From NCBI GenBank assembly GCA_000442125.1, contig KE546982.1, positions 1 through 64,000 on the forward strand: a stretch of DNA of 64,000 bases, written 5' to 3'. The stretch comes from Opeltia flavorubescens (taxonomy: Eukaryota > Ascomycota > Lecanoromycetes > Teloschistales > Teloschistaceae). A program made the position numbers and the translations under genes. Positions 1 through 40,185 of this stretch are shown here, one piece after another. The notes under the pieces were generated by a model, which saw nothing but the letters and a program-made list of their open reading frames with translations, ran no database searches and was not told the origin of the DNA. Numbering within the stretch: position 1 is the first letter of the stretch; the number at the start of each line of letters is the position of its first letter.

Positions 1-89
1 CCTAACCCTAACCCTAACCCTAACCCTAACCCTAACCCTAACCCTAACCCTAACCCTAACCCTAACCCTAACCCTAACCCTAACCCTAA
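1..89. repeat. Telomere repeat array (CCCTAA)n
   Basis: Uninterrupted CCCTAA units run from the first base to about 89. This is the C-rich strand of the TTAGGG telomere repeat used by most filamentous ascomycetes, read inward from a left chromosome end. The array is followed directly by RIP-altered sequence, so the window starts at a true chromosome end and not at an internal telomere-like tract. Confidence 0.97.
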
Positions 90-7152: not shown

Positions 7153-8821
7153 GCAGGGAACGGACTATATACTTATCTAAAGAATAGAGTATCGAGCGTC
7201 GATTCTGGTCGCGAGGAAGAAGTTAGTCGCGCTATAGTTACCTATTATATACTATACGTTTACGTCCGTAACGCTATTTTTTAAATTCGTAGTAAGCTCC
7301 TTTATTAAAGGAGCGAATACCGCGTAATTTAAACAGCGATATTCAGATATATTACGTCTGGCTTCTTTCGTTTCCTTATTAACGCCTCCGCCGAGGCCTT
7401 AAATATAGAAAGCGTGGATAAACGTATACTTAAATATTTTTAACGGCCTTTTTTCGAGTTCCAAGGCTACCTATTTACTATAGGGGATAGATTCGCCGAT
7501 AGTAACGGTACGCCCGTTAACGTTATTAATAGTAGATATAGACGTTCGTCGTAGGTACATTATATAAAGGAGTAGTAGGAATAGATCTACCGCAGTATCG
7601 GACTCCAGCTACTAGTTTTACTAAAGTTTCGCGATATTATAAAAGGCTTACGGATAGAGGAGGTACTAATACTTAACTAATTACGCGGCGGACAGTTTCC
7701 TATCATATAATACTTCTTTAGCTTACTTATATTCTTCTAGATCTAGATACTCGTTCTCTTCCTCAGCGTCGCCTAGGTAGATAAAATACAGTAGGCCTCG
7801 AAGGTCGGCCCCTTTATTAAATATAGGGGTGGCGGTTACTAAATTATAGTATCGGGCATTCAGTTAATTAATCGACTTATACGTCTAGATCGAGATATTT
7901 TAAAGGCGATATACCTCGTTATAAATACTATATAGTAGATCAGTATACTGGCCATACGGAATATTAATAAAAAGGGTCTTAACTATTTATACGCGCCCGA
8001 AGATACCTAAATAGAACGATTAATATTTTACATTTAGCTTTACTAGCTCGTCCACTTTTTTTACGTCGTCTTCGTCGCCCGGTTTAAAACGCCGCCGTTT
8101 ATAAAAATCCGGATTCGGGCTTATATCCAGGGATCGGTTCACCCAGGTATTATAAGTAGTAAAATATACCTATTCTAAAGCACGCGGGGTATCGGGTAAT
8201 TACTAAATATCCTTAAGGAGGTCTATAATATCGGTCTTTAACGTAATTTTATAGTAATCTAGATTTAACTATAGATTGGAGCTGTTATAGAATAGGCGGA
8301 GGTATTATACTAAGGTAGGAATCTCTAGAAGCTCTTTACGCTATATCTAGCTACCCGAACTTTTATAGATGATAAGGATTAAGCGGTATTGCCTATTTCC
8401 GATCTTGTTAACCAGTAACGCCGCCTTACGGTATTTACGCGCCTAAAGGTCGGTAATAAACTAGATCGTCCTCTTCCTAGCGGCTTTAAAACGCGAGTTA
8501 AAGGATTTAAAGCGAGACTAAGTTATATTAAAAAGAGCCTAACTAGAGAGGCGTAAGGGCTAATCTAATACTTTAATAGTAGGTATTTCTTTTTTAAGTA
8601 CTTCGTCGGCTATATTAATATTATCGTCGAGGATAATATCGGAAGCGTCGGCTATAGAGATATCTCGACTAATCTTATTTACGGATACCTATCCCTCGCT
8701 CGTATTACCAGAATATTACTTCTCTTATATATTAGGCGATTTCGAAGAACGTAATTCCGTTTTTAGAAAAAATAATAATCGGATTAGTAGTACTCGTAAA
8801 AGAATCGATTGCTACTCTACT

Positions 8822-8993
8822 AAACTCGCTTATAAGTAAGTAGGACTGGTACTCTGCCGAACTCGCCTGTAGGTAAATAAGACTAGCACTCTACCGAACT
8901 CGCCTATAGGTGAGTAGGACTAGTACTCTACCGAACTCGCCTATAAGTAAGTAGGACTACTACTAGGGCCACTCGCCTGTAGGTAAGTTCGGC
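8822..8993. repeat. 37-bp tandem array of the palindromic motif
   Basis: About four and a half units of 37 bp start near 8,822, 8,859, 8,896, 8,933 and 8,969. Each unit has a palindromic core (ACTCGCCTATAGGTGAGT type) plus the spacer aggactagtactctaccg with small changes. The array lies 150-320 bp downstream of motif I of the SNF2-like gene on its coding strand. Just upstream of the array, on that strand, is a GTAAGT (complement of 9,065-9,070), so the array may sit in an intron. Units vary at a few positions, so it is not a recent homogeneous satellite. Confidence 0.8.
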
Positions 8994-10602: not shown

Positions 10603-10686
10603 GCTAAAAATTCAGATATCTTATCGAATTCGTTAGCAGGCTAACTAGAAAAAAAAGGAGGAAGAACGAGGTAAGATATAAGAAGC

Positions 10687-10735
10687 CGCCGAACTCGCCT
10701 ATAGGCGAGTTAACTCCTCTATAATTAAGTTCGGC
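10687..10735. repeat. Perfect palindromic motif plus second half-site
   Basis: The core ACTCGCCTATAGGCGAGT is a perfect 18-bp palindrome here, with gccga upstream. After a short spacer a further arm (aagttcggcc) follows, so the whole stretch is flanked by gccgaact and agttcggc as an outer inverted repeat. This is the best-preserved copy in the window. Confidence 0.8.
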
Positions 10736-10739
10736 CAAA

Positions 10740-11300
10740 ACTTACCTTTTAGGCTGCAATACGCTGTAGAATAAAAGTTAGTTAACGAATAAGGAAGTAT
10801 AATAGGGGTTAAAGGTATTAAAGTTGTTATAAAAGCTACGGAGTTAGTACAGTAAATAGTTGGAATCGGTATAGATTATCCTATTATATTACAAGCGTTA
10901 GTTGGTAATACGCCAGACTTTAGGGCGGAGCTCCAAATAGAATAATATACTACTACAGATAATAAGTAATTGCGGCGTAGTACAGCGAAGCTTTTAAAAG
11001 CGTTAGATCGCGTTATAAAGTCTAATTAAAAATAAGAATATAGAGTAGTAAACGAAGCCGAGTATCTGTAAAAAAAAAAGAGTGCAAAACGTAATATAGA
11101 GAAAGTTAGAAATCTAGAGCTTATAAAGGTGGTTTTATACCTATACTAGCTTATATACCTAGTAATCGTCGATAGGAGTCGCGTAATACAATTTCCTTTA
11201 CTAGCAAACACTTACTAGTAAAAAAGTAAGGTAAGGTAAGATAAAATAATATAAAGTAAGAGTAATAAAAAAAAAATATATAAAGTCAACTTACCTACAG
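10740..11300. other. Spacer between decayed genes
   Basis: RIP-type sequence with several AG-rich runs (for example gtaaggtaaggtaagataaa near 11,227-11,246). No frame stays open and no family could be recognised. It separates the 5' end of the SNF2-like remnant from the next minus-strand coding-like block. Confidence 0.5.
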
Positions 11301-11310
11301 GTAAGTTTGG
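11285..11310. repeat. Palindromic motif copy, ACTTACCTACAGGTAAGT form
   Basis: The copy reads caacttacctacaggtaagt and then ttg. Both strands contain a near-ideal fungal 5' splice-site string (AGGTAAGT), and the plus strand also has CTACAG, which resembles a 3' splice site. Confidence 0.75.
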
Positions 11311-11980
11311 TAAAATAAATAGTTAGAGTATAATATCTAAACGCCTGCTAGTAAATCCGGCGGTATCTATAGTCTGGATAAATCGATACGATATCGAAGC
11401 TAGTCTACGTAGAGGTATTTAGACGCCTTAAATCTAATAGAAAATAGGTTCCTTAATAGTAGCCTAGAGGGAACTAATATCTAGGCTTCGACGGGTTCTA
11501 TTATCCTAAAGCCAAGCTAGACGAGGAGGCCGTAGGACCTCGCTAGGCCTAGGTACTATAGAGAGACACGGTAATAAGGGGTACCTAAAAGGGTAGACGA
11601 GGAATATTTTAGCCGCGGGGGTCTTCGATTAAATAACCCAACTGATATCTAATTTAAAAGATCGCCTTTATTAAAACCCGTTAATATAGTATTAAGATCG
11701 TAGAAGAGTCGGTAGGGTTTTTATATTAGAAATTATAGTTTAAGGAGATAGGGCTCCTTTATTTCTCGGCACAGCGGTAATATAGTAGTACCGTATAGGA
11801 GGTTAAATTTCTACTCCTCGACGAACCCTTTGATATAGCTATTAATAGGTTATTAAAACTAAAATCACTACTATAACTTCGTTAGTTTAGATGGATTAAT
11901 ATTAAGACGAATATTATTAAACGCTTTACTATATAGTAGTAGAGGTTAGCGTTCTAGCTACTAAATAGACTTAGCGAAAC

Positions 11981-12113
11981 GCCGAACTCACCTATAGATA
12001 AATTCGGTATAATTACCTAACGATTACCGAGGGTCTAAAGTCGCCTGTAGGTAAGTAGGGTATAGTTACTATACACTTATCGAGTGTTTAAAGTCGCTTA
12101 TAGGTAAGTACGG
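11981..12113. repeat. Cluster of three palindromic motif copies
   Basis: Copies begin near 11,982 (gccgaactcacctatagata then aattcggt), 12,038 (agtcgcctgtaggtaagtag) and 12,091 (aagtcgcttataggtaagta). Spacing between cores is about 55 bp, unlike the 37-bp period of the array at 8.8 kb. They precede the minus-strand coding-like block on its 3' side. Confidence 0.7.
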
Positions 12114-12114
12114 C

Positions 12115-15100
12115 CGTTTATATAAACCTCCTATACGTTACCCGACTCTTTTAACCCTATAACGTCTAATTCTCGAGCTCGAAGGATAACTCTAACGTTT
12201 CTTTATAACCAACATCGCTTCCCTTATTATCTCTATCCTCGTAGGTATTATATGGGGTTATAAATTCTCGTACCTTATTCAGCTCTATAGGTTATCCGAT
12301 CGAACGTATATATTTAACTATCCTTCTCGCTCGTTCATATATAGGGATTATAGCTACGGCGACTTCGAGGGTGTATTCTTCCTCGATTTCTTCAATAAGT
12401 ATATTACGAGCGTCGAATACCTCTATCGCGGCGATTTATAACGCCTCTTTAATATCTTTACTAGGTCTCCTACACTACTTTTCAAGGGAACGGCGACCGC
12501 TCGGGCGGAGGACGGATTTAAAGGAGCGTAAACGGGGTTTACGGCTTTTTAACCCGTACTCGAAAAGCCAGAGCGATTCCGCCGGGACTATAGGAACGAT
12601 CCAGCTAATATAACATAACTAGGGCTAATTACCCCTAGCCTTGGCCTTTACTACTAGCCTAGTAGAAATTAGAGCTTTATACTCGCTATAAATTCGGTTA
12701 TTATCGTAGTAGAGAAGGATTAAAAGGCGACGACTAGCTAACCGGATTAAATACTTAAACTACTTCTACGCGTATTTTAAAGTTAGCTCGTCTTAAATAA
12801 TAGCGAATACGAGCCGTATATATAGACGATACTACTCTTATTCCTACGCGGATCCACGTAGATTGCTTATAACGCGATCTTCGAAGCCGAATAGTCCCCG
12901 TATACAATCTATCTATAGTAGGAAGGCCGACTGAACTTTAAAGGTTCTAAAGCCCTTATTATCTAAACCTTTTAATTTATAAAGGTAGGTAATTTAGGGT
13001 TCGAACCTAATAATTTTAGATATAAAACAGAATAATAAGCCTTTAAAGCCGTTGTTTTAGTCCTAGAATAGTATATTACAGAATATCTCCTTAATATTCT
13101 TCGCTTTATTTAAAAGGAGATCTTTTCTAACGTAATACTCAAAGATATTCTATACCCGTTTTATATATATCTAGATAACCAGTTTAACGNCGGAGTTTTA
13201 TAGGTCCTAACGAGCCTTTAAACGTGCTATAAATCCATTCTACGCTGCCCGTATTCGCAGGGCTATCTCTCGTAATCTAGCGAGCCTACTGTTCTACTAT
13301 AAGATAATACCGGCGATATTCCGTCGTACTTAAAAGTATTATTAAAACGCGTTAATTATATTTAAATCCGGAATTACTTCGGCTTTAAAGATAGAGAGAC
13401 GTTTCTAATAAAAGACCTAAGGCAATAATATTAAGCTAAAATCGCGTAGGATCTGCTAGTAGTTAAGGCTATACCGCTTAATCTTTTAGATATCGAAGCA
13501 GGCGGAATCTTACTACGTAAACGGCCCCGCGCGTTTTATTTTAACTATCTATCGCCAGCTCTTCTTCTATAAGGCTTCGAACTCCTATAAAGTTTGGCCT
13601 CTATATATCATACGTAAGGTACAGGTGAAAACCTGAATAGTAATACTAAGGTATTCCTATATAACGGGAGATATAGCCTCCTACCCGCGGGCTGGCTTAG
13701 ACTCGGCAGCGAGGGCTTTTAAAGGGAGGAGCTATTAATTAATTTAGGCGTAGATAAACTCGAAGATATCCTAGATATTCAGGCGTTAAAAAGGTTAATA
13801 GCTGGCAGCGGCGGCTATAATAGAGGGATTAGTACCGGTTTCCTTAGGGGTCATTAGGGGTCGCCGATATTTAACGTCCTAAAGTAAAAAGTCTAGAGTT
13901 TTAAACACGGCGAGGGTGATTCGGAACTCTTAACAGACCTTAAAGGATTTTACTACCTTATCGAATACGGGTTTATCTAGATACTTAGAGGGCTCGATCT
14001 ATTCTACTATACTATAGAAGGCCTTATTAAGTCTGGTTTTTACCGCGAGGAACTATTTAATAATACGAGCCTTAGTCTATATAGTTTATACAGGGGTATC
14101 AGGATCGTATAGGTCTTAATAGGCATCACCTCCTCGTTTATTAATAGCGTCCTATCGGTTAATCTCGGCCTGGGTAAAGCTAAAAACTTTAAATAAGGAA
14201 TTAATAAAAGGGAGGATATTTTTAACAAAGGAGTAGAATAGATTAAAAATAATATTATACGCTTTAAAATACGCGATTCCTTACAGGCGACAAAATTAAT
14301 TATTCTCCGCTAGCTCTACTAATATTAAAGCCATATCGCGGGTTAATATCTATAAGTAGAGATCGATTTTATAGCGCCGTACTATACTTCGGGGGTTATT
14401 AAAAGCCTTAGCCTACTTTTATAGACAGAGTTCCTTAAATAGTAGTATAACCCTATTATAGGTAGAAAAGTCGTCGAAACTAAAGTCGAGATAGATTTCC
14501 TCGAAAGATATAATTTTAAGGGAGGTATTAAAGAGTAAATCTAGATATACAAGATAGTCTGCTTATATTCGATTAAAGTCTATTAAATTAATAGCGACGA
14601 ACGATTTAAAACTATAGGCGTATAGTATTAAAATAGGTCGTTAAAACTCTAGCCGCCGGTTAGCTAGTATATATACCTTACACTAAAATACCCTAAGGCG
14701 GGAGGCTGGGATAAAGTAGGCTAGATCGATAGGTTGCCTTTTCGCTTACCGGTATTCGTCGTAAACGTGCGCCTTAGTAAATATATTATCCTATATCGCG
14801 GTATACCGGCTAAGAATCTTAATATTATAAATAGCCTTTAAAGCCGGAACAATAATTTCGTTAATCTAGATTATTTATTTATCGTGTAGAACAAAAGGAT
14901 TACTTTTTTCTTTTTTTCCTTTTCTCTTTTTCTCTTTCCCCTAGTTCTCCTTTTTTTTTTCTTTTTTATTCTTCTTTCGAGTATACTACGGTATACATAT
15001 TACGGGGAATAATACGTATATACTATAACTCTAACCGCCGCTGCCGATATTATAACCAAACCGGACGTATTTACAGCGGTCAGGTTCAATTCTACTAATA

Positions 15101-15320
15101 GTTACTCTTTAGTTTTCCGTAATACGTTAATTATACAGCGAGTAGTATATAAATTTAAAGGTTATTTTATAGATAGTTAAACTTTTAACGTACGCGATAA
15201 AACTATCGACGTTCTATTCCCGTTAAATCTAAATACTTAATACGGATATCCGTTCTAAATATCTACGTTCTAAAGCTTAAAGGTCGAGTTTATAGGATCG
15301 TAGCTGGCTAGCGAGAAGGG
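12115..15320 (-). pseudogene. Unrecognised minus-strand coding remnant
   Basis: I do not recognise the family. Several hundred bases at a time read as protein on the minus strand if RIP-type stops are ignored, for example a segment with SPANTGSVEWIYSTFKG near 13,180-13,270. A polybasic run (KEKEKRKKKK) is encoded around 14,900-14,960. Stops are mostly TAG/TAA, as in the SNF2-like remnant. It may be the 3' part of a large gene that begins in the duplicated segment near 16,300, since coding character continues across 15,320. No domain motif supports a function. Confidence 0.4.
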
Positions 15321-15724
15321 CTTCCTATTTACTATTAAGGAAGTTTCGCCTTACGGTACCCTACTCGAGTATTTCTATAGAATATAGGGGTAGTAGTATA
15401 ATTAAGTCTCCCTCTTAATCCCTAAAAAATAGATTTATAGCACTCTATATTATAACTAGTTAGTATATCGCGCTGCTACGGGCGATTAGATAACGGGACT
15501 CTTACCGCTATTAATTACTACCTAAAACCTCGATAAGGTCTTATTTACTATATAAGTACGTATATCGAGCCGCGGTATTTAAAGCTATACTAGCCTAGCG
15601 CCGGGGACATCTAAAAGTATAATACGATAGAGGTGGTATTAGGGAAGAAATCTAAATATCGGAACTTATACCGTAGTAATCGGTAGTAGAAGGAGGTTCG
15701 GTATCTATACTTACTATACTATCG

Positions 15725-15965
15725 GAATCTTCGTTAGAATCGTTATCGAAACCTTCGTTAAAATCGTTATCGGAATCTTTATTAAGATCGTTATTAGAAT
15801 TTTCGTTAGAATTATTATCGGAACTTTTATTAAAGTCGTTATCGAAATCTTTATTAAAGTCGTTATCGGAACCTTTATTAAAATTATTATTAAAACCTTC
15901 GTTAAAATCGTTATCGGAATCTTTAATAGGGTCGTTATTAGAATTTTTATTAGAGTCGTAGTTAC
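15725..15965. repeat. 24-bp tandem repeat encoding acidic octapeptides
   Basis: About ten units of the type gtcgttatcggaatctttat plus taaa occur in a row. On the minus strand each unit gives eight residues such as FNKDSDND, probably more Asp/Glu-rich before RIP turned GA into AA. The right duplicate (about 18,130-18,240) keeps fewer units, so the array contracted there or expanded here after the duplication. Confidence 0.8.
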
Positions 15966-16370
15966 TATTAAAGCTACCTTCTAAAATATAAAAAGGGTTA
16001 ACTTAAAATAACCTATACTAGCGATATAGAGGCGATAAACCTATTAATAGAATTCGTTCGGAAGACCGCGAAATCTATTTATCCTCCAATTTATTACTCG
16101 AATAGTCCCCGCTAGATATACTAGGCTCGCTATTCCTAGTAGTAACTATATAATAGGCTAGAGGAATACGATTCTGCACGGCTGCTAGTAGTTAAGAAGG
16201 CTATATAAAGGAAACGGTTGCACTTTAAACTTCGTATATTAGTAGATAGTAGATAGTAGAACGCGTGGATACTCGAGGCTTAGAGGAGTTAGTAGCCATA
16301 GATAAAAATAAAGGGGAGGGACCTATAATAGATACTTAAAACCTTATCGGGTTGGTTTAAAAGTATAAAA

Positions 16371-16640
16371 TACGATAATCTTCAGATAAATCCACTTCTA
16401 ATATTATATTAAACCCTTCCTCGAATTTAATAATTAGATAGACTATAGGCGAAGATAGTCGAAACTCAGCTTTATCTATTTCTAAAATTATACGGAACCC
16501 TTCCTCGAGTTCGATAATAGAGTAGATAGTAGGTAAAAATAATCTCAACTCGGCTTTATCCTCTTCTAATATCGTACGGAACCCTACGTCGAGCTCGATA
16601 GTAGGGTGAATAGCAGATAGTAATAGCTTATATTCAGCTT
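16371..16640. repeat. 84-bp tandem repeat (28 residues per unit), minus-strand coding
   Basis: Three units of 84 bp share the skeleton tcagctttatctatttctaa ... cggaacccttcctcgagttc ... gatagtaggt. On the minus strand they read as related 28-residue units with EEGFRIILEIDKAEFRL as the core, visible in a 63-codon open stretch at 16,357-16,548. The right duplicate has the same repeat at about 18,650-18,920. No known repeat family is recognised. Confidence 0.75.
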
Positions 16641-16869
16641 TATAGCGAGCGTTTAAGGTAGGTAATAATAGTTAATTACTCCTCGGAGACGAAAGATATA
16701 AATTATAGCTAAATCGATTTTAAGTTCTAGTAAAAGACCTAAGTAGACTCTAACTAGGTATATCTATAGGGGAAGATAGTCTTGGAGAAAAAGTACGCTA
16801 GATCTTACGTAGTAACCCTATATCGGTTATTAGCGAGTAAAACCTGGATTATAAATAGATCGATTAATA

Positions 16870-16897
16870 CCCGAATTTATCTATAAGCGAGTTCGGG
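16870..16897. repeat. Palindromic motif copy inside the left duplicate
   Basis: The stretch reads cccgaatttatctataagcg then agttcggg. Its arms CCCGAA/TTCGGG are complementary. The matching site in the right duplicate is at about 19,144-19,169, so the motif was already in place when the segment duplicated. Confidence 0.7.
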
Positions 16898-17740
16898 CCC
16901 TATAAACAAACGAAAGAATATATACTAACTAGATTTTAGTTCTCCCTTTCGAGGGTAGAAGGGATAATTATAAAAGGGGGAGTAGTCTGCACGATAGCTA
17001 TATTAAAAGGTAGGCCTATAACTATAATTACTATAGATAAGTTTCGAGCGATAGATTCGGATTATATAATCAGCGTTCCTATTCAGCGAGCTATAAGATT
17101 CGCTTAATTAGCTTATTACCGTAAGAGTTACTATATACGTTTCTCTTTATTATTAAAGATAATAGAGGACCTTTTCTATTTACCTATTAAAGCGTTCTTA
17201 AAGGAAGGGGATAAGATAAAATAAAAAGGCGAGAAGGGGGATACGAATATATAGGACGAAAGGATATAAGGGTTCTATTTTAAGAGAATAATACTAGGGA
17301 TATAAAATAAAAGAAGGATAATTTTTACGCTTAATTCTAAAGATCGAACTTAATTAGTAGTTCGAGATTTAAAAAATTTTAGGGGTATAGGAATTTAATA
17401 ATAAATCCGCGCTTAATTCTAAAAATCGGTTATAATTAGTCGATATACTATTAATATCTTATACGGACTATTAATAATCCGAACGTTAAAAGTCGATAAT
17501 AGAAGAAAATTAAATTAAAAACTAGTAACGTTTACTAGTAAGTAGAGATAATAATAAAAAAGTAACGGAATATTTTATATAAAAGGGTTCTACAAACTTC
17601 TCTAGTTAAAAGTTTTTCTATCCGAGATTAAATAGGCGTGGTAGGTGGGATAAGAATCCCGCGGTCGCAGAAAAAAAAGTTCGAAATTTTCTCTAAGTCC
17701 TATACTCAACTTTAAGTTAAGTTATATTATTTGCGATTAT

Positions 17741-20014
17741 TATATTTATTATTAAAGAAGTTTTATTTTACGGTACCCTATTTAAATATTTCCGTAGAAT
17801 ATAGGGATAGTAGTATAATTAGGTTTTTTTTTTAATTTCTAGAGAATAGATTTATAATATTTTATATTATAATTAGTTAATATATCGCGTTATTATAAAC
17901 GACTAGATAATAAAATTTTTATTATTATTAATTACTATTTAAAATTTTAATAAAATTTTATTTATTATATAAATATATATATCGAACCGCGGTATTTAAA
18001 ACTATACTAGTTTAGTATTAAAAATATTTAAAAATATAATATAATAAAAGTAGTATTAAAAAAAAAATTTAAATATTAAAATTTATATTATAGTAATCGG
18101 TAGCGAAAAAAAATTTAATATCTATATTTACTATATTATTAGAATTTTTATTAAAATTATTATCGGAATTTTTATTAAAATTATTATTAAAATTTTCGAT
18201 AAAATTATTATCGGAATTTTTATTAAAGTTATAATTATTATTAGAGCTATTTTTTAAAATATAAAAAGAATTAGTTTAAAATAACCTATACTAGCGATAT
18301 AAAAGCAATAAATCTATTAACGAAATTTATTTAAAAAACCGCGAGATTTATTTATTTTCCGATTTATTACTCGAATTATTCCTATTAGATATATTAGGTT
18401 TATTATTTCTAGTAATAGTTATATAGTAGACTAAAGAAATATAATTCTATATAGCTATTAATAATTAAAAAAATTATATAAAAAAAACAATTATACTTTA
18501 AATTTTATATATTAATAGATAATAGATAATAGAATATATAAATACTCGAAATTTAAAAAAATTAGTAGTTATAGATAAAAATAAAAGGAAAAGATTTATA
18601 ATAAATATTTAAAATTTTATCGAGTTAATTTAAAAGTATAAAATATAATAGTTTTTGGATAAATTTACTTCTAGTATTATATTAGATTTTTTTTTAAATT
18701 TAATAATTAGATAAATTATAAATAAAAATAATTAAAATTTAGTTTTATCTATCTCTAAAATTATATAAAACCTTTTCTTGAATTCGATAATAGAATAAAT
18801 AATAGGTAAAAGTAATTTCGACTCGATTTTATCTTTTTTTAATATTATATAAAATTTTATATTAAGCTCGATAATAAAATAAATAATAGGTAGTAATAGT
18901 TTATATTTAGTTTTATAGCGAGCGTTTAAAGTAGATAATAATAGTTAATTATTTTTTAAAAATAAAAAATATAAATTATAATTAAATCGATTTTAAGTTT
19001 TAATAAAAGATTTAAATAGACTTTAACTAGATATATTTATAAAAAAAAATAGTTTTAGAAAAAAAATACGCTGGATTTTATATAATAACTTTATATCGGT
19101 TATTAATAAATAAAATTTAGATTATAAATAAATTAATTAGTATTTAAATTTATTTATAAACGAGTTCGGGTTTTATAAATAAACGAAAAAATATATATTA
19201 ACTAGATTTTAATTCTTTTTTTTAAAAATAGGAGAAATAATTATAAAAAAGAAAGTAATTTATATAATAATTATATTAAAAAGTAGGCCTATAATTATAA
19301 TTACTATAAATAAGTTTTAAATAATAAATTCGGATTATATAATCGATATTTTTATTCGATAAATTATAAAATTCGTTTAATTAATTTATTACTATAAAAA
19401 TTATTATATATATTTTTTTTTATTATTAAAAATAATAAAAAACCTTTTTTATTTATTTATTAGAACGTTTTTAAAAAAAAAAATAAGATAGAATAAAAAA
19501 GCAAAAAAAAGAATATAAATATATAGAATAAAAGAATATAAAGATTTTATTTTAGAAGAATAATATTAAAAATATAAAATAAAAAAAGAATAATTTTTAT
19601 ATTTAATTTTAAAAATTAAATTTAATTAATAGTTTAAAATTTAAAAAATTTTAAAAGTATAAAAATTTAATAATAAATTCGCGCTTAATTTTAAAAATCG
19701 GTTATAATTAATCGATATATTATTAATATTCTATATAGATTATTAATAATTTAAATATCGAAAATCGATAATAGAAGAAAATTAGATTAAAAACTAATAA
19801 TATTTACTAATAAATAGAAATAATAATAAAAAAATAACGGAAGATTTTATATAAAAGGATTTTATAGATTTTTTTAATTAAAAGTTTTTCTATTTAAAAT
19901 TAAATAAGTATAATAGATAGAATAAAAATCCCGCGGTTATAGAAAAAAAAATTCGAAATTTTCTTTAAATTCTATACTCAATTTTAAATTAAATTATATT
20001 ATTTATAATTATTA
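17741..20014. repeat. Tandem duplication, right copy (heavily RIP-altered)
   Basis: This copy aligns from end to end with 15,325-17,742 but has C-to-T and G-to-A changes at most sites outside CpG. It is about 140 bp shorter, partly because the 24-bp acidic repeat has fewer units. Remaining C and G sit mainly in CG pairs such as ccgcgg and aacgag. This gives direct, alignment-based evidence of RIP in this genome. Confidence 0.9.
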
Positions 20015-23000
20015 TTTTTTTTTTTAAAATTTTTTTTTTAATTTATATAATAATTGCTATTATTTATTAATAGTTCCGATTATAATTATTAATCGAAATC
20101 CGCTATTTATTTTAAATTTTTTATTATTTTTTATTACTATAAATATTAAATTAATAAATAATTAAAAGTTTTTAATAAATATTAATTTATAAATTAAATA
20201 TAATATTTAAAATTTTAAGTAATATAATAATAACCCGGTTAATTTTATAAAATATAGCGATTTTAAATTTCGGAATTTATATTTTATAATAAATAATTAA
20301 TATTTAATTTATTTTAATTAAAAAATATTAAAAATATAAAATATATAAATAAAGCGTTTTATATACAAAAAAAAAATATAATTATAAAAGTTTTTTAAAT
20401 TAGCGGTAATTTTTTTTATATATATATTAAAAATTTTTAATAAAAATAATATTATATAATAGTATATATTATAAAATATTATATAAAGTTTAAATTTTTA
20501 TATAACTATTTTTTATATTTATAAAATTATTTCGCTATTTTTTTACTATTAATTTATTATATATTTTTAATTTTATTATAAAAGTTCGATTATATATTTA
20601 TATTTATATACTTTTTATATTATAAATTTTAAATTATTTTAAAAATTTTTAATTATTTTTAAAATATAAATAAAAAATAATTTTATTTTAATATATTAAT
20701 TCGGATATTTAAATATTAAATATAGCTATTTTTAATTTTATATATAGATTTTATTTTTATTATTATATATTTAATTACCTGTTTTTTATTTAAATTATTT
20801 TATAGACGGTAATAATATATAAATTTATTATTTATTCCGGATTATATAAAATATATCGATAAATTTATTAGAAATAATAATATAAAAATTTATTATTTTA
20901 ATTATTCGAGAAATTTTAATATAAATCTAATTATAAATAAAAACTTTATAAATTTATAAATTTAATTTAATATATTTTAATAATTAATTTTATAAATTAT
21001 TAATTATTATAATAAATATAACTCGAATAAAAAACTAAATATATTTAAATAGGTAAAAAATTTTATTTTTTTTTTTTTTTAAAATTTTATTATTTTTTAT
21101 ATTTAATAATATATATAATATAAAAATTTCTATATTAAAATATTTATTATTAATAATTTCGGCTTTTAATATTTATTAACCGATATATATAAATTTTATA
21201 CAAATACTATTATATATAATTAAAATATTAATATTTTTTAAAAATATAATAAATATATTAATTTTAAAACGAAAAATATATAATAAAAAAAAAAATTTAT
21301 TAAAATTATAGAAATATTTAAAGCCGAATTTTTTTTTAATATTTTTTTTAATATTTAATTTTAATTATATTTGAAATATAGCTTATTTTTTATTAAATTT
21401 ATATAATTATTATTAATTATTAATATATCGATATCTATTATAATAAAAATAGCTCGTTTTTTTAAATAGTTATTATTATTATTAAAATCGGTAAAATTTA
21501 AATAAATAATTTTAATTAAATTATTTATAATATTTTTTAAAATTACTTTATATTTTTATAATATTTTTTTAATACTAGATTTATTTATAATAAAAATATT
21601 AATATTATTAATTTTTAATATTTTTTAAATAAATTTTTTTATATCGAAACGGTTTTATATATTTAATAAAAAATTATAAAATCGTATATTAATTATTAAT
21701 TATAAAATATAAATATTTTTTTAATAAAAAAAATTTTATAAATATAACTATATTATCGAATTAAAATCTACGCTAGAGTATATAAATAAAAATAAGCGGA
21801 AATCGCTATAAAAATAGATTATTTTTTTTATAAATAGAATATTAAATTTAATTTTTATTAAATTATAAAAAATTCAATTAATAATTATAAAATTTTATTT
21901 CCGTTATATTATCGATTTATTCTAAAAAATTAAATCGATTTTATAAAAAAGTTTTATTTTTATTATATTTTTTTTAATTCTATAAATATTATTAAATATC
22001 GAGTTTAATAGAATTTAAAATATATTATAAACGGTTTAATTACTATTAAATAAAATCGATATAATATTAAAAAAAATAATAATAAAAATAATTTTATTAT
22101 TTTTTAAAAACGAGCGGAGTTTAATTATAATAATATTTTATATAAAAATTTTATTAATATTATTAAAACTATTTAAAAAAAAAATTAGAATTTATATTTA
22201 TATTATTAAAATACTCGTTAAAAAATTTATTATTAATAACCGTTTTTATAATAATTTTAATAATAATTTATTAATTATAATTAAATTTAATTTATTCTAA
22301 TTTTATTATATTTTATACTATTATTAAATATTTTTATTTTTATATTAACCGTTTAAATTTTATTAAAAATTTATTAAATTAAATTATTAGAATTAATAAA
22401 TCGAAGTCGGTTAATATATAAAGTTTTTTTAATTAGATTATTTAATTTAAAAAAATTTCTATTAAATATAAAATTAATTATTTATCGCGGTTTTAAAAAT
22501 TATTTAAATTATTATTAAAAATAGTAAAAAATCTATTATAATTTCGAGTAATAATTTTTTTATAATTTTTTAAAAGCTTAAATTATATAATAAAATATAT
22601 TAAAAAACGAGTTTTAGTAATAATTTCGCTATAAAATTAGTATAAATTCGATATAATAATAAATTTATTTATTTTTAAAAAAATTTTATAAATATACGGG
22701 TTTAATTAGATTATATTTTATAAATATTATTATAAAAAGATTTTAGAATATTATTATAATAATTTAAATTTCTATTATTTTTTATATATAATTATATTAT
22801 TCCCGATTATTATTAATTAAATTAAAAATTATATATATTTTTTTTTATTTTTTTAATTTCTATTTAATTCTATTATTTTTTTTATTAGAAATAAAAATAA
22901 AAACGGTTTTAAAATTATCGAAAAATATTATATTTTTTTTATATATAAATAAATACTATATATAAAAAAAATCGCCGGATTTAAAGTTTATAAAATAAAT

Positions 23001-26000
23001 ATATTTTATTATATACTTTTATTAATAAATTTTTTATTTTTTATAATTTTATTTTTAAATAAATATTTACAGAAAATTATAATAAAAATATTTATACAGG
23101 TTAACTTTTTAATTTTTTATTTATTATAATTATTATAATTTTTATTTTATTTTTTTTTTTATTTACCGATTTATAACGAAAAATTCGATTAAAATTATCT
23201 AATAAAAATTTCTTTTATATATTAAAGCCGCCGTTATTTTCGTTTTATAATTAAAAATTATATATTATTTTTTTTTTAAATAAATTATAAAATATTAAAT
23301 CGAGAGATTTAAAACCTTTTATTAGCAGGTTTAAAATTTTTTAATAAATTTTATATAATTTTATTTATTTATTCGATTAAAAAAATATAATTTTATCGAT
23401 AAATATTTTATTATTTTATATATCGTTAAAATATTACGAATCTATTTTTCTAATAAATATAGTTTAACTATTAATAAAATCGCTTTTTTTTTAAATATAT
23501 TTATAAAAATAGTCTATCGATTTTAATAAAATATAGATTTTAATATTAATATAAATACGGAATTTTATAAATAGATACCGATTATAAAATACTATTTATA
23601 TATTATTTTATAACGTTCTTTTTATAAATTTCTAAATAGATCGACGATATTAAAAAAAGCCGCTAAAATAATTTAGGTTAAAAACGTTAATTTTTAATTT
23701 AAAAAAAAACTTTATATATTATTTATTTATATTTTTATAAAAATTATTAATTTTATTTTTATAATTTTTATAAATTATATATTATTTTATTTATTTAAAA
23801 AAATTAATATTTTTATTAAAATTAGAAATAATAATTTAAATAATATTATTAATATTATTTAAATTAAAATAATCAAAAAAATTTAGAATAATTAAAATAT
23901 AAATATAAAAAAAACTTTTTTTTTAAAATTTAATAATATATATATAGCCGCGATATTTGTTTATAATATATTCTTTTATAAAATTTTATATTAGCTTTTA
24001 AAGCTTTAATTAGAATATATAAATAATAAAATTTAATTATTATTTAAATAATTAATTAAAATAAATATTTTTTTTAATTTATTTCTAATTAAAGTTATAA
24101 ATAAAAGTAATAAAAAAAAATTTATTAAAATTATAAATTAAAATAATAATATTTAATTTTTAAATTTTTATATATTATAAACTATTATAATATTTAAAAA
24201 ATAAAATAATTATTTTATTTCCGATATTTTTAAATTTATATTTTTATTTTAAATAATTTATATAACTATTATAAAAATTAATATAAAGATTTTATTAATT
24301 TTAATAAATATAATTAAAATTATTAAATTTAATATAAATTATAATATTATTAATAAAATATTAAAAAAATCGATTAGAATATAATAAACAATTAAATTTA
24401 TTAGAACGCTTTTAATATATAAATTAATTGTATAAAATATATATTAAAACGCGGCGATTATATAATAAAATCGCTATAAATATACCGCGAAAACGTAAAT
24501 AAATTTATATTATATAATAATAAAGTTATTTTTAAATAATTTATTTAAATTTTTTTTTTTTATATATTAATACCGTTTTAGAATTTTCCGTTTTTTAATT
24601 TTTATTATTTTTATTTTTTTTATTTTTATTATACTAGCTTTTTTTAATTTCAATATATTAACTCGTTTAATTATATTAATCGCTATTATTAACGAGTTTA
24701 TTTATTATATTACTCTCGTTTTTATTATTAGTAAAGTCCCTAGTTTTATTATTTTCCGATCGATTATAAATATACCGTTTTATTTATAAATTATAATAGC
24801 TTTTAAAATTATAAAAAAATATATTTTTATTCTAGTTCTACTCGCTATAAAGAAATAAAAAAAAATATTTTAAAATATATAAAAAAAGTATTAAAAGGGA
24901 ATTTATTATAAAATACTATTATAAATTTATTAAACGAAAATATATCTATTAAAATATTAATAGATATTATTATTACTAAATTTTACTATTAATATAGCGA
25001 TTTTATTCGATATAAATTTATTATATATACTTTTTTAAATTATAAAAAAATTATTTTATATTAAATATAAAATTAAATTAAAATTTATTAATTATTTAAT
25101 TCGCCGCTTTATATAAATATATATTATAATATATAAATTAATTTCTTTTATAATATTTTAAAATAATTATAAAATTTAAAATTTTTTATAATTTAATTAT
25201 AATTTAATTTTAAATATTATTTATATATTTTTTAATTATTATCGATTATATATATTTATATAAATTTAAAAACGTCGTTTTTTTAAAAAATATATTTAAA
25301 ATTATATATTTTATATTTTTTATCGCGCGAAAAATTAATCAAATATTATATTTATAGTTAATAATAATAATTTTGTTATTAAAAAAAAATATTATTATAA
25401 TTAATTAAAGTATTATAAAATATTAAATTATTTTAATTATATTTTTTTTTTTATTAATTTTATTTATCGATTAATAAATAGTTTTTTTAATTATTTTTTT
25501 TTTATTATAAAAATATTTTTATTAATAAATTTAAATATATAATTTAATTTTTTGATAAAAAAACTCTTTAAAATTTATATATACCGCGGTATAATTTTAT
25601 TAAAATAATAATACCAGTATTTTTTATAATTCGACGCTATATTATATTTTTTAAAATATTAATAAATTTTATAATAAAAGCAAATACTTTTTAGCAATTA
25701 AATAAATTTTAAAAGATAAAATTCTATTTAAATATTTAAATTTTTTATAATTATCCAATTATTATCGAGCTTTTTTTTATTATATTTAAAAATCCTTTAA
25801 AAAAAACCGCGAGGTATATTATAAATTTCTATTTTAATTTATAAAAACTATATAAATTTTTTTTTATTATTATAAACTTCTAAATTCTAATTAAATTAAT
25901 ATTTAAATATATTAAACTTTTATTATAAAAAAAAATATTTTTATTATTATTTAACTCGAAAAATAATAATATTAAAGTTTTTTTTTAACTAGAATTTATT

Positions 26001-28800
26001 AAAAAAATTTTATTATTATTAAAAAATAATATTAAAATATTATTTTAATTAAAATCTATTAAATTAATTTTATTATTATTATTTAATATTATCGAATTTT
26101 ATTTTAAAACTTTATTTATATTAGTATTTATAAAAATAATTTTAATATTATCGTTTATATTTATTATATTTTTTATTAGGATTTTTTTCTATTTTAATTT
26201 ATTTTTAATATTTTTAAAAAATATATTAAATAGTTTAAAAACACGACTAGCTAATTTTTAAAATTTCTATAGCTCTAATTTAGCCCGTCGGATTTTATAT
26301 AGTAGATATAATATTAAAAAAATTCGAAAAAATATTAATAATCGATTTTATTATTTTATTTATTTTTAAATAATTATTAAATTAAAAATAAAAATAATAA
26401 AAAAAAAAAAAAATTATAAAAGCGTATAATAAATAGTAATTAATATAATAAAAAGCGGCGAAAATATAATAAAAAGCTTTTATAAAATCTATAAAGAAGT
26501 ATAATAAATAAAAAATAATAAATTTAATAAAATTAAAATAATAATTTATATCCGTTTAAAAAGAGGTATTTAAAGCGGAAAATTTATTTAAATTCTTTTT
26601 ATTCTAATAAAATAGATAATATAATACGCGTTACTATCGATAAAATTTAATAGAATTTGTTATTAAATATTAGTTTATACTATTAAAAGAATTCGAGGAC
26701 TATTAAAAAATTAATAACTAATTTTTAATCGATAATTTAAATATATTAATAGAATTTTAAATTATTTTACTTTATATTTTAAATAATATTCTATTAATAA
26801 AAATCTATAATATTTATAAAAGGAAAATTTTTTATAAAAATAATAGATTTATAATATTATATAGAATAAAAAAAGCGTTATAAAACTAATAAATTCGCTT
26901 TAGAAAAATAATAAAATAATAGCTATTTTTTATATTTTAAACGATTATAGATTAAAAAATCTATTAATCCTCAGCTCTATTAATAAACTATTATTATATA
27001 TAATTGAATTATTAATACGAATCTTTAATAGCTAATAGCGCTATTAATTTTTATTAAAATTTTATAATTTTTGCAATATTAGAATACACTCGTTTAGCGT
27101 TTTAAACCGAGCTTTTTTATATATTATTATACCCTATATTTATAGATTAAACTCAACTATAAATACTAACTAGATTTTAGTATTCCTTACTTAAACGAAT
27201 GCAGCTTATTACTAATAGATTAATAAATAGAAATCAATTTTTTATATAAATTAAACCTTTTATTTTTGAATTTTATTATAGAAAAAGTAGATATTTTAAT
27301 TTAATATTATTTTTAGAGTTTTTTTTTAAATTTATTAAATTATTGTTTATTATTAAATTTTAAATTTTATTAAAATTATACTATCGGCTATTAATAGAAA
27401 ATATAAATTTAAAAAAAATAAAAAAAATAAATTTAATAAAAAAACTTCAATTAAAAAAAATAAATAAATATTTTAAAATAATATTATAATAAAAACCGCT
27501 AATTTTATATTAATTTAATTTTTTAAATTTAAAAAAAATTTTAATTTAAAAGTTAATATTATAAAAAAAAATATTTTAATTTAATTAATAATTAATTCGT
27601 TTATAATAGATATAATTTTTAACGATTATTTATAAAATTTAAATTTTTTTAAAATTATAATTTATAAAAATTCAGTAAACTATAATTTATTTATTAATTT
27701 TATAAATATAATATTTAAAATATCGAATTTAGTTTTTTTTAAACGTTATAAATAAAATTAAAAAATATATAAATTTTATATTATTTAAAAATTCGCCGGA
27801 AAAAATAATAGAAATTAGAATAAATTTAAAAAATATAAAGTTTCGATTAAATAAATAATTATTTATTTATCGAATTATATATATTAATTTATAATTTTTA
27901 AATTATAGTTAATATTTTTTTTATTAGAATTTTCTTTTATATAAAACTAATAATTAATTCTTTAATTTATTATCGATTTCGCCGTTTATAATAAAATTTA
28001 AATTATTGAAATTTATATTTTTTAATAAATAAATTAATTTTTTAAAATTTCGAATATTAATTTAAATTTTTATATTAATAAATATTATTTTTTAATTATA
28101 TTAGATATAATTTTATATCGATTTCTAAATAATATCTAATAAACTATTAGAAATTAATAAAAAATCTTTTTTTTTAAAATATCGCTAATACTTAATTTTT
28201 AAAAATCGATTTTTATATTTTATTAAAATTTATAATATAATAATTTTTTATTTAATACGCTATTATTTAATATAAAAGCTTTTTATTATTAAATTTTTAT
28301 ATTATATTTATAAATATAAAATAACTTTATTATCGAATAAATAAATTAAAATTATATTAAATTATTTAAACGATATAATATATATAATATAAAAAAAATA
28401 ATTATAAATTTATATAAAAAAAAAAATATTTAAATAAATATATTTAGGATATATAAAATAAAATATAGTATTTTATTTTAATAAAATTTATTATAGAAAT
28501 ATTTTTTCTAATTAAATTTTAAAAAAAATAACGATTAAAAATAATAGAAAATTTATTATAAAAAATATATTAAATAGTTAATTTAAAAAATATAAATAAA
28601 TAAATTTTAAAAAATAAAAATATATATATTAAAAAAATTATTTAAATCGAAAATATAAAATAATATAAAAATAATAAAAACTATAATATAATTTTAATAG
28701 TGGATATATTATTATATTTAAAAAATATTCGTTAATTAATATTAAAACGTTTATTATTTAAAAAAAAATTTTATTTAATTATAAAGCTATCTATTTTTTC
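20015..28800. other. Extremely AT-rich RIP desert
   Basis: Nearly all C and G outside CpG have been lost, and long A/T runs fill every frame with stops. No gene, tRNA or rRNA can be recognised. The sharp change in composition at about 17.75 kb coincides with the start of the right tandem copy. The block is probably one or more old repeats mutated beyond recognition. One dispersed repeat copy is recognisable at 27,018-27,300. Confidence 0.75.
27018..27300. repeat. Dispersed repeat, about 280 bp, copy A
   Basis: It matches 63,592-63,868 in the same orientation. Shared anchors include agctaatagcgc, the stretch around acaatttttgc/ataatttttgc, gattttagtattcct, and tttatttttgaattttatta. This copy has lost C and G at positions the other keeps (for example ttattactaatag here against ttgcagccaatag there). 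The family is unknown and no coding sequence is evident. Confidence 0.8.
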
Positions 28801-28849
28801 TAATATAAAAATCAAATTTTATCTATTAGCTAAAGCCTACGCTATAACT

Positions 28850-31620
28850 CTTCGCTATTACAATAGCTTCGACTATTGCCTCCTATAACAAAGATCAAGA
28901 AATAATTGCAGCTGATAGCGAAGTCTCCATCGGCGTATTTTCCTGATTCTCTTCGTTGAATACTTTCTTACCTCCTTAGTATAGTAATTATTGGGGGGGT
29001 TTTACCGTGCTACTGCTATCGACCTCTTTTATAGAAGTTGATACCTGGATTTCCTTATTATTGGGATCCCTATAGATACGCCATTCGTTGGATTGCTCGC
29101 CTTTGGCGCGTTCTTTAATCGGATCGGTGTTAATTGATTTGAAAAATTTAATTATCGATAAGAATACCGTAGCGTCTTCTTTACGGGTTGGATAATGGGG
29201 AGTATTAGTGATTAGAGCAGGGGCGATATCTGCATTTATATTCAAACCCGCTTTTGCTTGGAAGTTTGAAGAAAGCCACAAAGGAATAAATAGTTGGGCC
29301 CTCGCTTTATTTTTGGGAAGATTAGCTTCATTCGGTCGGCTGAGATAAAATTTCGCAGATGGCTCTACGATAGGAAAATTATTTGACTTATACGATATAT
29401 AAACTCGTTCGGCCAACCTAATAATTTCTTATCTGGCCAAATATTCGAGTGCCGCCGTTGCTTCGTATAACCCAAAAATATTAAAATATAGCCAATTTTA
29501 TACCGTATAAAGCGGAGATCGATATAAGTCGAAAACGATAGTAATATCGAAATTAATAAATATAATCTGGCTGGTTCTCTAGTTCTATAAGATATTTCTA
29601 TACACGGTATCTTAATAGTAAATACTTATAATTATATATTATCGCTCGAACTTATCCTTCTTATAGTTAACTAGAATCTATCTTAGTATATTACGTGCAA
29701 TATTTATCGCCACCGATTCTCCTGCCCAAAATATAAGAAGTATATATACAATATCGATATTACCGCCTATCCATTTCTGGATTAGGTCGATGTTACCAAG
29801 GTATACTAGGATATTTTTTCCTTACCTCTCTTTTAAAAAGGAGTAGACTCTGGTTTTATACTTCGCTCTTGCGACGAAGGTTTTCGATATATCTTTGGCG
29901 ACGAACGTGTAACTATAAAATAGTAAGGTAATTTTAAAGAGTATACCTGTATAACCCTACTTTTACAAATTGATACAATAGTTATCGAAGTCTTCCGCGA
30001 GTTATTAACGGACGAGATAAGTAAGAAGAGGTCTGGTAAAAGTATATCTATTACTGGCGTGGTACTGGGAATGAAGCAGGAAGTTAGGGCACGAGATATC
30101 TATCGCCGTTCGATCAACTAATCCCTTTAAGTAAGCGTGCGAGCAGTATATATACTTATACCCGGTTCCACGCGATATCGATAACTGCTATTTGTTTTCT
30201 AGAGGCTTGCTTTTGGAAGAATAATTTGGATTGTAAGACTGCGGTCGATACTTTATAGGTATATTATCTGAGTAGAAATCGCTACTATCCTCGTTATTAC
30301 TATCAAGCTTCTTTATAAAGCTTCCTGGAGGTTTGTACTCTAGCTTAATTGGCGTTAAAAGCTTCAAATTCAATGGAATAACAAGGGTTTGGAATATTAA
30401 AGCAATCTCCGCACGGGATTTGCGGGCAGATTATAGTCTCTTATATTCCGTCACTTCGAGTGGAATATCTTGTTCAGGCTCGCGCTTTTTGTAATTTCAT
30501 CGCTTTCCTTTTTTATCGACTTTCGCACGCTATTTTTGGTTATAATCCTTTACGCCGTGGGCTATTAAATAAAAGCTTACCAGCTGCGCAATTACTGTAT
30601 ATTTATAAGTAAAGCTCCCCTGGTCGTTTAACTGGTGGTTTACCTCGGCCTTTAGGTCCGTATAATAGAAGTAGACGGTATATAGCTCCAGCTCCTTGAC
30701 TAGGAAAAAGATTATAGCCTTCCCGGTTATAATTACGCCGTAGCTGATTCCAGATCGAATTATATACAAGTATATCTGGGTGATAATTATTGCGATAAAC
30801 TTATCCGCTGTATACTGGAACTTCTCCTAGGTACTCAACGGTTTCGTTGCCCGTTTAATCACCTTTAATTCAATATCGTCTACTAAATAAAGGCCTGTAT
30901 TTAGAAGTTCGGCGGTAGCCTTATATAGAGGCTTTATCTTAAAAATCGCTACTAGTCTTCTTTTCTTGTAATTGTAGTGCTTGATATACAACTAATCTGT
31001 ATTTTTGGGACGATAGTACTTGAATTCTTTTTTGTCCTCGTCGTTATCGGTAATAACGCAGTTGGTATAGTTTTCGAACGTTATTTTCTCCTCGAGATGG
31101 AATTTGCTGCATGCTTTAGGTATCGAGATTAATCGCGTGATAATAGATCGGACAAAAGCTTTAATATAAAGTTAGTGATAATTTCGGAGGTTTTGCTCGT
31201 ATAAAACGCTTTTCGGGGTATTTTTGGCAATTTCGTTAATCTCGCTTCGTGTATAAAAGTAGCGTTATTTATCCTGATCCTATAATCCAAAAAAACTCCT
31301 TATATCGTTGAATATATTTTTCCTAAAATCCGAGAATTCAACCTATAACTTCAGCATTTGCGGATGTATTTTCTTGGTGACTTTAGTTATTTTACCGGTC
31401 GTAGCTTTTATAGGATCAGTCTCGACACGCAAATAATCAACGAACTTCTTATAATACGCTTCCAAAAGCTGAATAAACGTGGTTGAGTCCGTCTTTTTAT
31501 ATAATTGTATATTTTCTAATCTAAATTCTATATTCTCCGATTTGTATATATCTTTTTCTAATATCACTCGATTAAGGAGTCTTCCTAACTCCTTATTAGA
31601 AAATTGAGCGTACCGATTGG
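28850..31620 (-). pseudogene. Broken gene resembling a fungal subtelomeric kinase-like family
   Basis: On the minus strand, successive open stretches read as one protein of roughly 900 residues in order. An N-terminal part includes STTFIQLLEAYYKKFVDYL (31,343-31,567). A middle part reads YIIRSGISYGVIITGKAI and then VYFYYTDL, with VIAQLVSFYLIA (30,530-30,769). Next comes an acidic linker with DSNNEDSSDFYSD (30,188-30,373). A C-terminal part includes ILVYLGNIDLIQKWIGG and ends in a 142-codon open stretch (28,988-29,416). The pattern of a sheet-like block with ITTGEAxxFL, then a Ser/acidic linker, then a segment with IPVxLGNIDL is what I recall from multi-copy fungal proteins annotated as kinase-like. 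Catalytic kinase residues are not visible, so any kinase activity is unsupported. The stops are RIP-type. The 3' end is much less mutated than the middle. Confidence 0.5.
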
Positions 31621-34880: not shown

Positions 34881-35399
34881 TTGAAGCCTTAACGAGTCGG
34901 TGTCTTGAGAGTCTCCGCGTATTCTCCAAGCCCTGCGTCAGGGACGACTCGGCTCACCCACATACAATTGTTTTGCCACGCAAATTCACAGTTGATGCTT
35001 GGTGAGGGCTCGGTCTGCAGTAAAAATTCTTTGCTGACAATACTGCGGACGAGATCGGGGTTCCCGTGCTCATAATTTTCGCTTTCTATGTTGATGGAAA
35101 GGAAACGACTAGAAGGATTTTCGGTCGCGATCACCCGAAGAAGCCCTGTCATGAATGCACCACGGGGATCCTGGCCCTTAACAATGCCACCAAGCGTCAA
35201 CTAAACCATGCTTTTGCTCTGGGCAAGATGTTGGAAACATCGGAGACGACGTTCGTCAGAGTCCAAGAGATCATTTTGACTCGTCAGAAAAGCGATGACG
35301 CGAGCATTGATCGGCTCAACTTCTATTGCGGCATCGATTGGGAAAGTTTTGCATATGCCACCTTGACGCTCGAGTTCTGCGGAGATCTGTTTCAGGAGT

Positions 35400-40129: not shown

Positions 40130-40185
40130 CTATTATAAGACAGTGATCAGCTTATGCTATGGATCAGAGTAGTCGAGTGACTTGC
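40130..40185 (-). other. PKS intron 3 (56 bp, GC-AG donor)
   Basis: The only join that restores the highly conserved GPSLTTNTACSS motif uses donor GCAAGT (after GGCCCGAG) and acceptor TTATAATAG. A GC donor is a known minor class with otherwise perfect consensus, as here. A RIP change on the coding strand would turn C to T, not T to C, so RIP did not create it. Confidence 0.82.

What the first reader, a model, noticed from the sequence alone, without database searches (positions are those of the whole stretch)
15325..20014. Tandem duplication with strongly unequal RIP in its two copies
Two adjacent direct copies of about 2.4 kb align end to end. The left keeps C in most contexts outside CpA; the right has lost nearly all C outside CpG. 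RIP is usually thought to mutate both members of a pair, so a sharp boundary at the copy junction (about 17,741) is unusual. Either the left copy was protected, or the right copy belonged to a block already mutated, or the duplication arose by exchange after RIP.
Basis: seen in the sequence. Interest (0 to 1): 0.72.

Follow-up and report, generated by a model that had tools for sequence, protein, structure and literature searches.

The report
Stacked chromosome-end repeats of unequal RIP
At this fungal chromosome end a younger copy of a long end-of-chromosome repeat appears to sit directly on the cut stump of an older copy, and because each copy was mutated separately by the fungus's anti-repeat system (RIP), the mutation level jumps at the seam.

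Summary
Window 15326-17743 (A) and 17744-20015 (B) are adjacent direct copies: in a purine/pyrimidine alphabet, which RIP cannot change, they are 99.4-99.6% identical, with 2-3 transversions in 2272 aligned sites. RIP outside CpA is 231/1032 sites in A and 630/921 in B, and the step falls at the copy junction within about 100 bp. One detail is wrong: B did not keep CpG; it lost 66-71% in each non-CpA context.

It is not a private duplication. A is the inner end of a subtelomeric repeat ("F1", 28 kb at C2R) with 16 detected copies on 14 chromosome ends, all in one orientation. All 16 share one centromere-side end. The telomere-side end varies, and in four copies telomere repeats sit on the cut. 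B is a distally truncated F1 copy with a long F1 copy directly outside it. Another end, C19R, has the same architecture and RIP step. A and B share no more RIP sites than a typical pair.

Best reading: ends erode, modules attach by a fixed end, and RIP load records exposure since arrival. How they attach is unknown; no reverse transcriptase was found.

The parts
1..89 (.). telomere repeats (CCTAAC)n at the left end of contig C18
88..17743 (+). outer F1 copy (contains A): subtelomeric repeat, cut at its outer side by the telomere at w88; collinear with the 28-kb copy at C2R
   Evidence: w88-17744 aligns to C2R 10646-28193 at 99.6-99.8% in purine/pyrimidine letters
7741..7932 (-). SNF2-helicase-like relic inside F1 (below the family cut-off)
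   Evidence: 23.2 bits against cut-off 24.9
15326..17743 (+). segment A of the finding: inner 2.4 kb of the outer F1 copy, moderate RIP (CpA 149/173; other 231/1032, counted over w15226-17743)
15720..15959 (+). 24-bp minisatellite, longest in A among ten copies that span it, 6 units shorter in B
17733..17743 (+). fixed inner (centromere-side) end of F1, here GCGATTATTAT; the same end, allowing for RIP and a few changes, at 16 of 16 copies
17744..20015 (+). segment B: inner F1 copy, truncated on its outer side at A-equivalent w15327, heavy RIP (CpA 166/168; other 630/921)
20016..29000 (.). inner flank of B: AT-rich block (GC 7-12%), no homology to F1 found in purine/pyrimidine searches

Best explanation
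This is a stack of two copies of one subtelomeric element (F1). F1 lies with the same end toward the centromere at every detected copy and has a fixed terminus there; its telomere side is variably cut. An older F1 copy at this end lost its outer part down to the equivalent of w15327, leaving B. A new long F1 copy was then joined by its fixed inner terminus directly to that stump, and its own outer side is now capped by telomere repeats at w88. Each copy was hit by RIP separately: CpA first, then the other contexts almost equally. B has therefore passed through more RIP than A, and the mutation density steps at the seam. Shown: fixed inner end, one orientation, terminal location, outer truncation, direct abutment, independent RIP of A and B, and the same step at a second chromosome end. 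Inferred: the order of arrival (B first) and RIP load as a measure of exposure time. Unknown: the attachment chemistry. End-primed copying of a transcript, as for HeT-A (recalled), or a terminus-specific joining reaction would both give a fixed inner end.
For: 16 of 16 detected matches of a 700-bp F1 probe (a lower bound, by the tool's own note) lie within 34.1 kb of a contig end, on 14 different ends, all with the inner end facing the centromere. All 16 copies end in ATTATTAT or its unmutated form ATCATCAT. Of the 15 inner flanks compared (A's flank is B), only those of C2R, C21R and C22R resemble one another, and F1 meets that shared layer at three different points. Outer ends differ: B w15327, C19R inner copy w11759, C14L w10635, C22R w16674, C18R w16915, C3R w16907, C20L about w17084; with telomere repeats on the cut: C18L w88, C12R w867 (only 11 bases of repeat at that contig end), C3L w16633, C5R about w17271. 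A second tandem, C19R (seam 17743|11759), has 21/64 non-CpA sites mutated in the last 200 bp of the outer copy and 63/75 in the first 200 bp of the inner one (Fisher p 6e-10). GC also drops at the F1 inner end at C2R (0.41 to 0.15 in neighbouring 1-kb bins). A and B were RIPed independently: 155 sites mutated in both, 43 in A only, 475 in B only, 248 in neither; odds ratio 2.12, 16th lowest of 55 pairs, median 2.58. RIP is graded over 14 copies, from 0 (C3L) to 0.78 (C20L); outermost copies are lower than buried ones (Mann-Whitney p 0.021, 8 vs 6; p 0.026 without C13R, whose outer part was not read); Spearman with transversion events 0.58, p 0.03. Two other end families behave alike: F3 (C8L, C10L, C5L) has a sharp shared inner end, F2 (C14L, C15L, C6L, C11L) one shared to within a few bases, both with differing outer ends; at C14L F2 abuts a truncated F1.
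Against: The neutral clock does not separate A from B: one transversion each in 2498 and 2252 sites. C21R is outermost yet heavily RIPed (0.73), and C22R is buried yet only 0.36. The C19R outer and inner copies have the same minisatellite length, as a local duplication would give. A shares more RIP sites with C1L, C21R, C19R-outer and C22R (odds ratios 3.76, 3.64, 3.55, 3.34) than with B, so some exchange or shared RIP history between ends is possible. No reverse transcriptase or transposase was found in F1, so the attachment step has no enzyme; in the Pfam scans w3601-17762 was covered on both strands, the rest of the C2R copy on one strand except its outer 10 kb (both). Only two F1-on-F1 stacks are known here.
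Confidence: 0.7

Rival explanations
1. Local tandem duplication of the 2.4-kb segment (15327-17743), followed by replacement of the outer copy by homologous exchange with a less mutated F1 of another chromosome end.
For: The seam 17743|15327 is exactly what a tandem duplication gives; A shares more RIP sites with C1L, C21R, C19R-outer and C22R than with B; the two C19R copies share a minisatellite length.
Against: The duplicated segment would have to end exactly at the F1 terminus in both tandems (C18L, C19R), and the exchange to stop at or near the seam in both. A and B are the two extremes of minisatellite length among the ten copies that span it. C14L shows another family joined to a truncated F1 in the same manner.
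Confidence: 0.13
2. Break-induced replication between subtelomeres: a broken end copied the outer part of another chromosome end.
For: Large collinear blocks are shared by several ends; telomere repeats cap truncated ends; such events are described for chromosome ends of the blast fungus (PMC7367193, passages seen).
Against: Copying from a random invasion point to the donor's tip predicts a variable inner end and a shared outer end; a fixed inner end is seen in 16 of 16 copies. Invasion through B's own F1 homology would leave one chimeric copy, not two.
Confidence: 0.1
3. Position effect: the outer copy was protected from RIP and the inner lay in a block more open to it.
For: The first 100-300 bp next to the telomere is little or not mutated at some ends.
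Against: A lies 15-17 kb from the telomere and has lost 149/173 CpA. C1L and C21R, also outermost, are strongly mutated. The C2R, C19R-outer and C1L copies all lie 27.5-28.1 kb from their ends and differ: 0.09, 0.46, 0.51.
Confidence: 0.04
4. Assembly join of two chromosome ends at 17743.
For: Reads were not available; F1 is a long repeat.
Against: No N at the seam; the seam falls on the element's fixed terminus; C19R shows the same architecture on another contig.
Confidence: 0.03

Closest known systems
MoTeR / FoTeR telomeric retrotransposons (Magnaporthe oryzae, PMC7367193; Fusarium oxysporum, PMC12857005)
   Same: Located at chromosome ends, head-to-tail arrays; MoTeRs have their 5' ends nearest the tip, undergo truncation followed by new telomere formation and leave truncated internal relics; RIP on decayed FoTeR copies (passages of PMC7367193; abstract and section 19 of PMC12857005).
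   Different: They encode a reverse transcriptase and join through telomere repeats. F1 is 28 kb at C2R, shows no reverse transcriptase, and holds no TTAGGG/CCCTAA within 100 bp of 16 inner ends.
Subtelomeric helicase repeats DHX_G198, DHX-chim_G203 and DTX-chim_G199 of Colletotrichum higginsianum (PMC5576322)
   Same: Long (11.3-18.5 kb) repeats at chromosome ends in one orientation with predicted helicase domains (passages).
   Different: Described as single full-length copies that contain telomere motifs and DUF3505; no stacking of RIP-aged copies appears in the passages seen.
X3X3R8 repeat of Parastagonospora nodorum (PMC3017866)
   Same: 26 kb, RIPed, with two divergent X3 parts carrying Rad5/SNF2-like helicase sequence (passages); F1 is 28 kb with two SNF2-like relics.
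   Different: Sequence relation not testable here; the passages seen call X26, not X3X3R8, sub-telomeric.
HeT-A/TART arrays of Drosophila
   Same: Fixed inner end, variable outer truncation, new units added outside old ones (recalled; PMC5537684 seen in a search listing only).
   Different: Here telomerase-type repeats cap the ends and no retrotransposon gene was found.

Membership tests
Repeat-induced point mutation (RIP) | C:G to T:A transitions almost exclusively | tested here: met
   521 of 524 A/B mismatches are transitions
Repeat-induced point mutation (RIP) | CpA preferred | tested here: met
   In each of the 11 copies compared with C3L the CpA fraction is the highest; C2R 59/118 CpA against 19/411 other
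Repeat-induced point mutation (RIP) | RID/DIM-2-type methyltransferase in the genome | not tested
   no search made
MoTeR/FoTeR telomeric non-LTR retrotransposon | reverse transcriptase domain | tested here: not met
   PF00078 has 40 listed matches in the genome (a lower bound), at none of the F1 places; stop-masked Pfam scans gave none (strand coverage not complete)
MoTeR/FoTeR telomeric non-LTR retrotransposon | telomere repeats at the inner junction | tested here: not met
   no TTAGGG or CCCTAA within 100 bp of 16 of 16 inner ends
MoTeR/FoTeR telomeric non-LTR retrotransposon | one orientation, truncation on the tip side, telomere repeats on truncated copies | tested here: met
   16 of 16 orientation; telomere repeats on truncated F1 at C18L, C12R (11 bases), C3L, C5R
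Telomere-linked RecQ helicase repeat | RecQ-type helicase domain | tested here: not met
   PF00271 has 83 listed matches, none inside F1; one at C5:1949944 lies inward of the C5R copy; the DEAD-type domain was not searched on its own
X3X3R8-like repeat | about 26 kb with two SNF2/Rad5-like helicase copies and a Rad6-like gene | tested here: inconclusive

The most novel reading that the evidence does not exclude
A fungus with telomerase-type repeats rebuilds eroded chromosome ends by attaching whole 28-kb modules through a fixed terminus, as Drosophila does with HeT-A, but without a recognised reverse transcriptase; RIP then turns each arrival into a dated layer, so that the order of layers at each chromosome end can be read from one genome.
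Probability: 0.3. Interest if true: 0.75.

Novelty: new variant of a known kind. Interest (0 to 1): 0.5.

Why it matters
One genome holds 14 comparable copies of the same 0.65-2.5 kb, from unmutated to 78% mutated outside CpA. That gives a direct look at the order in which RIP uses up contexts and a relative calendar of chromosome-end events. If the fixed-end stacking is right, subtelomere growth in this fungus follows a rule other than the usual ectopic exchange, and the missing attachment enzyme becomes a concrete target. It also warns that unequal RIP between neighbours need not mean protection or copy-specific RIP.

Tried and rejected
Whole-window self-BLAST with short words timed out and was replaced by a masked search and a purine/pyrimidine search. 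A first change point with a poorly supported ancestral state put the step 80 bp inside B with an interval excluding the seam; with C2R and other copies added for the first 100 bp the interval includes the seam. In the table the last A row also counts B sites and was not used. The long flank comparison was cut in the output and full of weak AT-rich matches, so it was repeated more strictly for all copies. Reverse transcriptase or helicase origin of F1: not found or too weak (one search gave one chance-level match). TGA-free frames in the C2R copy pointed to no clear gene. The SNF2-like locus on C3 is itself fragmentary (longest stop-to-stop frame 137 aa in 4 kb). An apparent exception to the fixed inner end, C4L, runs into unread bases and says nothing. 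C3R and C5R were left out of the RIP table of 14 copies: C3R was fetched but not aligned into it, and C5R is an older subfamily (about 90% in purine/pyrimidine letters). C13R and C21R were classed as outermost without reading all of their outer sequence; dropping C13R gives p 0.026, dropping both p 0.008. The paper searches gave nothing closer than the papers named.
Full report
Setting. The window is the first 64 kb of contig C18 (870,562 bases) of a 34.4-Mb genome in 23 contigs and starts with telomere repeats. GC is 25-40% over the first 18 kb, 7-14% from 18 to 29 kb, 32-40% from 29 to 34 kb, 46-52% from 34 to 43 kb and 3-25% inward of that.

The two copies. A (15326-17743) and B (17744-20015) align end to end; 521 of 524 differences are transitions, 484 of them C>T/G>A from A to B and 37 the other way. 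In purine/pyrimidine letters, which RIP does not alter, they are 99.4-99.6% identical. The structural differences are minisatellite units and one base. B's RIP is not CpG-sparing: 68% of CpC, 66% of CpG and 71% of CpT sites are mutated; A has 18%, 24% and 24%. The step in non-CpA mutation density has its best position about 80 bp inside B; its interval, w17721-17827, includes the seam, and a break exactly at the seam costs 1.9 log units.

Not a private duplication. A 700-bp probe from A matches 16 places (a lower bound), all within 34.1 kb of a contig end, on 14 ends, all in one orientation. A's block continues outward: w88-17744 is collinear with a copy at C2R that reaches 28 kb to the telomere, and w4001-10600 and w11759-15325 recur at seven other ends: C1L, C2R, C4L, C12R, C13R, C19R and C21R (C4L in part, and at C14L from w10635 on). 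I call this repeat F1.

Fixed inside, free outside. In all 16 copies F1 ends inward at the same place (GCGATTATTAT here, GCGATCATCAT in the unmutated C3L copy). Of 15 inner flanks compared over up to 1.4 kb, only C2R, C21R and C22R resemble one another, and there F1 meets the shared layer at different points, as if that older layer had first been shortened by different amounts. Outer ends differ from copy to copy; four truncated copies carry telomere repeats on the cut (C18L, C12R with 11 bases only, C3L, C5R). C5R is an older subfamily, about 90% alike in purine/pyrimidine letters, with the same inner end.

Stacks. In the window a long F1 copy abuts B, which is F1 cut at w15327. At C19R a long copy abuts F1 cut at w11759. 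At C14L another family, F2, abuts F1 cut at w10635. F3 (C8L, C10L, C5L) shows a sharp shared inner end and F2 (C14L, C15L, C6L, C11L) one shared to within a few bases, both with differing outer ends, so the pattern is not confined to F1. Most right ends were read only around F1 or not at all.

RIP as a record. The non-CpA load over 14 copies is C3L 0, C2R 0.09, A 0.22, C22R 0.36, C12R 0.41, C13R 0.42, C19R-outer 0.46, C1L 0.51, C19R-inner 0.66, C14L 0.68, B 0.68, C21R 0.73, C18R 0.77, C20L 0.78. Load rises with transversion events (Spearman 0.58, p 0.03) and is lower in outermost than in buried copies (p 0.021; p 0.026 without C13R), with C21R and C22R against the trend. Transversions alone do not rank A and B (one each). 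At C19R the outer copy has 21/64 sites mutated in its last 200 bp and the inner copy 63/75 in its first 200 bp.

Independent mutation. Of the non-CpA sites readable in both, 155 are mutated in A and B, 43 in A only, 475 in B only, 248 in neither. The odds ratio, stratified by strand, context and 300-bp block, is 2.12, 16th lowest of 55 pairs with a median of 2.58. Since RIP does not revert, the 43 sites show that B does not descend from A's mutated state; the 475 show the converse. A shares more with C1L, C21R, C19R-outer and C22R (3.3-3.8), so some exchange or common history with those ends remains open.

Mechanism. Random break-induced copying would fix the outer end and vary the inner one, the reverse of what is seen. 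Local tandem duplication gives the same seam but needs its edge to fall on the F1 terminus, and the RIP step to fall on the seam, in both tandems. Attachment of a module by its own terminus to an eroded end explains all of it. No enzyme was found: the reverse-transcriptase family has 40 listed matches in the genome, none at F1, and stop-masked Pfam scans gave only weak SNF2 matches and one chance-level match. F1 has two SNF2-like parts about 13.7 kb apart, both related to a fragmentary locus on C3, which together with the length recalls the 26-kb X3X3R8 repeat (PMC3017866, passages).

Literature. I saw passages, not whole texts, of PMC3017866, PMC10787394, PMC5576322, PMC7367193 and PMC13068351, and the abstract and section 19 of PMC12857005. 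Among the 12-20 papers listed by each of the searches (more papers matched than were listed), no title or opening describes stacked chromosome-end modules with RIP steps at the seams; subscription papers are outside that library.

Verdict. A real and well-defined feature, ordinary as RIP, less ordinary as chromosome-end architecture.

Noticed in passing
C1L, C2R, C19R, C12L, C20L, first 100-300 bp after the telomere repeats (L009, L031, L036, L020, L028): The telomere-adjacent 100-300 bp keep higher GC and CpA while the next stretch falls to low GC (C1L 49% then 10%): a short zone spared by RIP, or recently renewed.
   Followed up: partly
C21R contig end (C21:667239-678374): The equivalent of w4001-6497 occurs again in inverted orientation at the contig end, a fold-back end or an assembly effect.
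   Followed up: no
window 27006-27292 and 63583-63868: A short RIPed repeat pair, also near C8L 3657-3961.
   Followed up: no
window 35204-40146, minus strand: Polyketide-synthase-like open pieces (ketoacyl synthase, acyl transferase, dehydratase, methyltransferase domains) in a 9-kb island of about 50% GC between AT-rich blocks.
   Followed up: partly
window 8813-8964: 37-bp tandem repeat, about 4 copies, inside F1.
   Followed up: no
C5L 2931-3021 (L013), C16L 9525-9675 (L024): Family F4 runs into TTTTTTATTATTATTATC-like units at its inner side, a tail as some non-LTR elements have (the comparison with non-LTR tails is recalled).
   Followed up: no
C13R inner flank (L006) and C20L inner flank (L028): A 558-bp stretch is identical in purine/pyrimidine letters in inverted orientation in the two flanks, away from the F1 junctions.
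   Followed up: no
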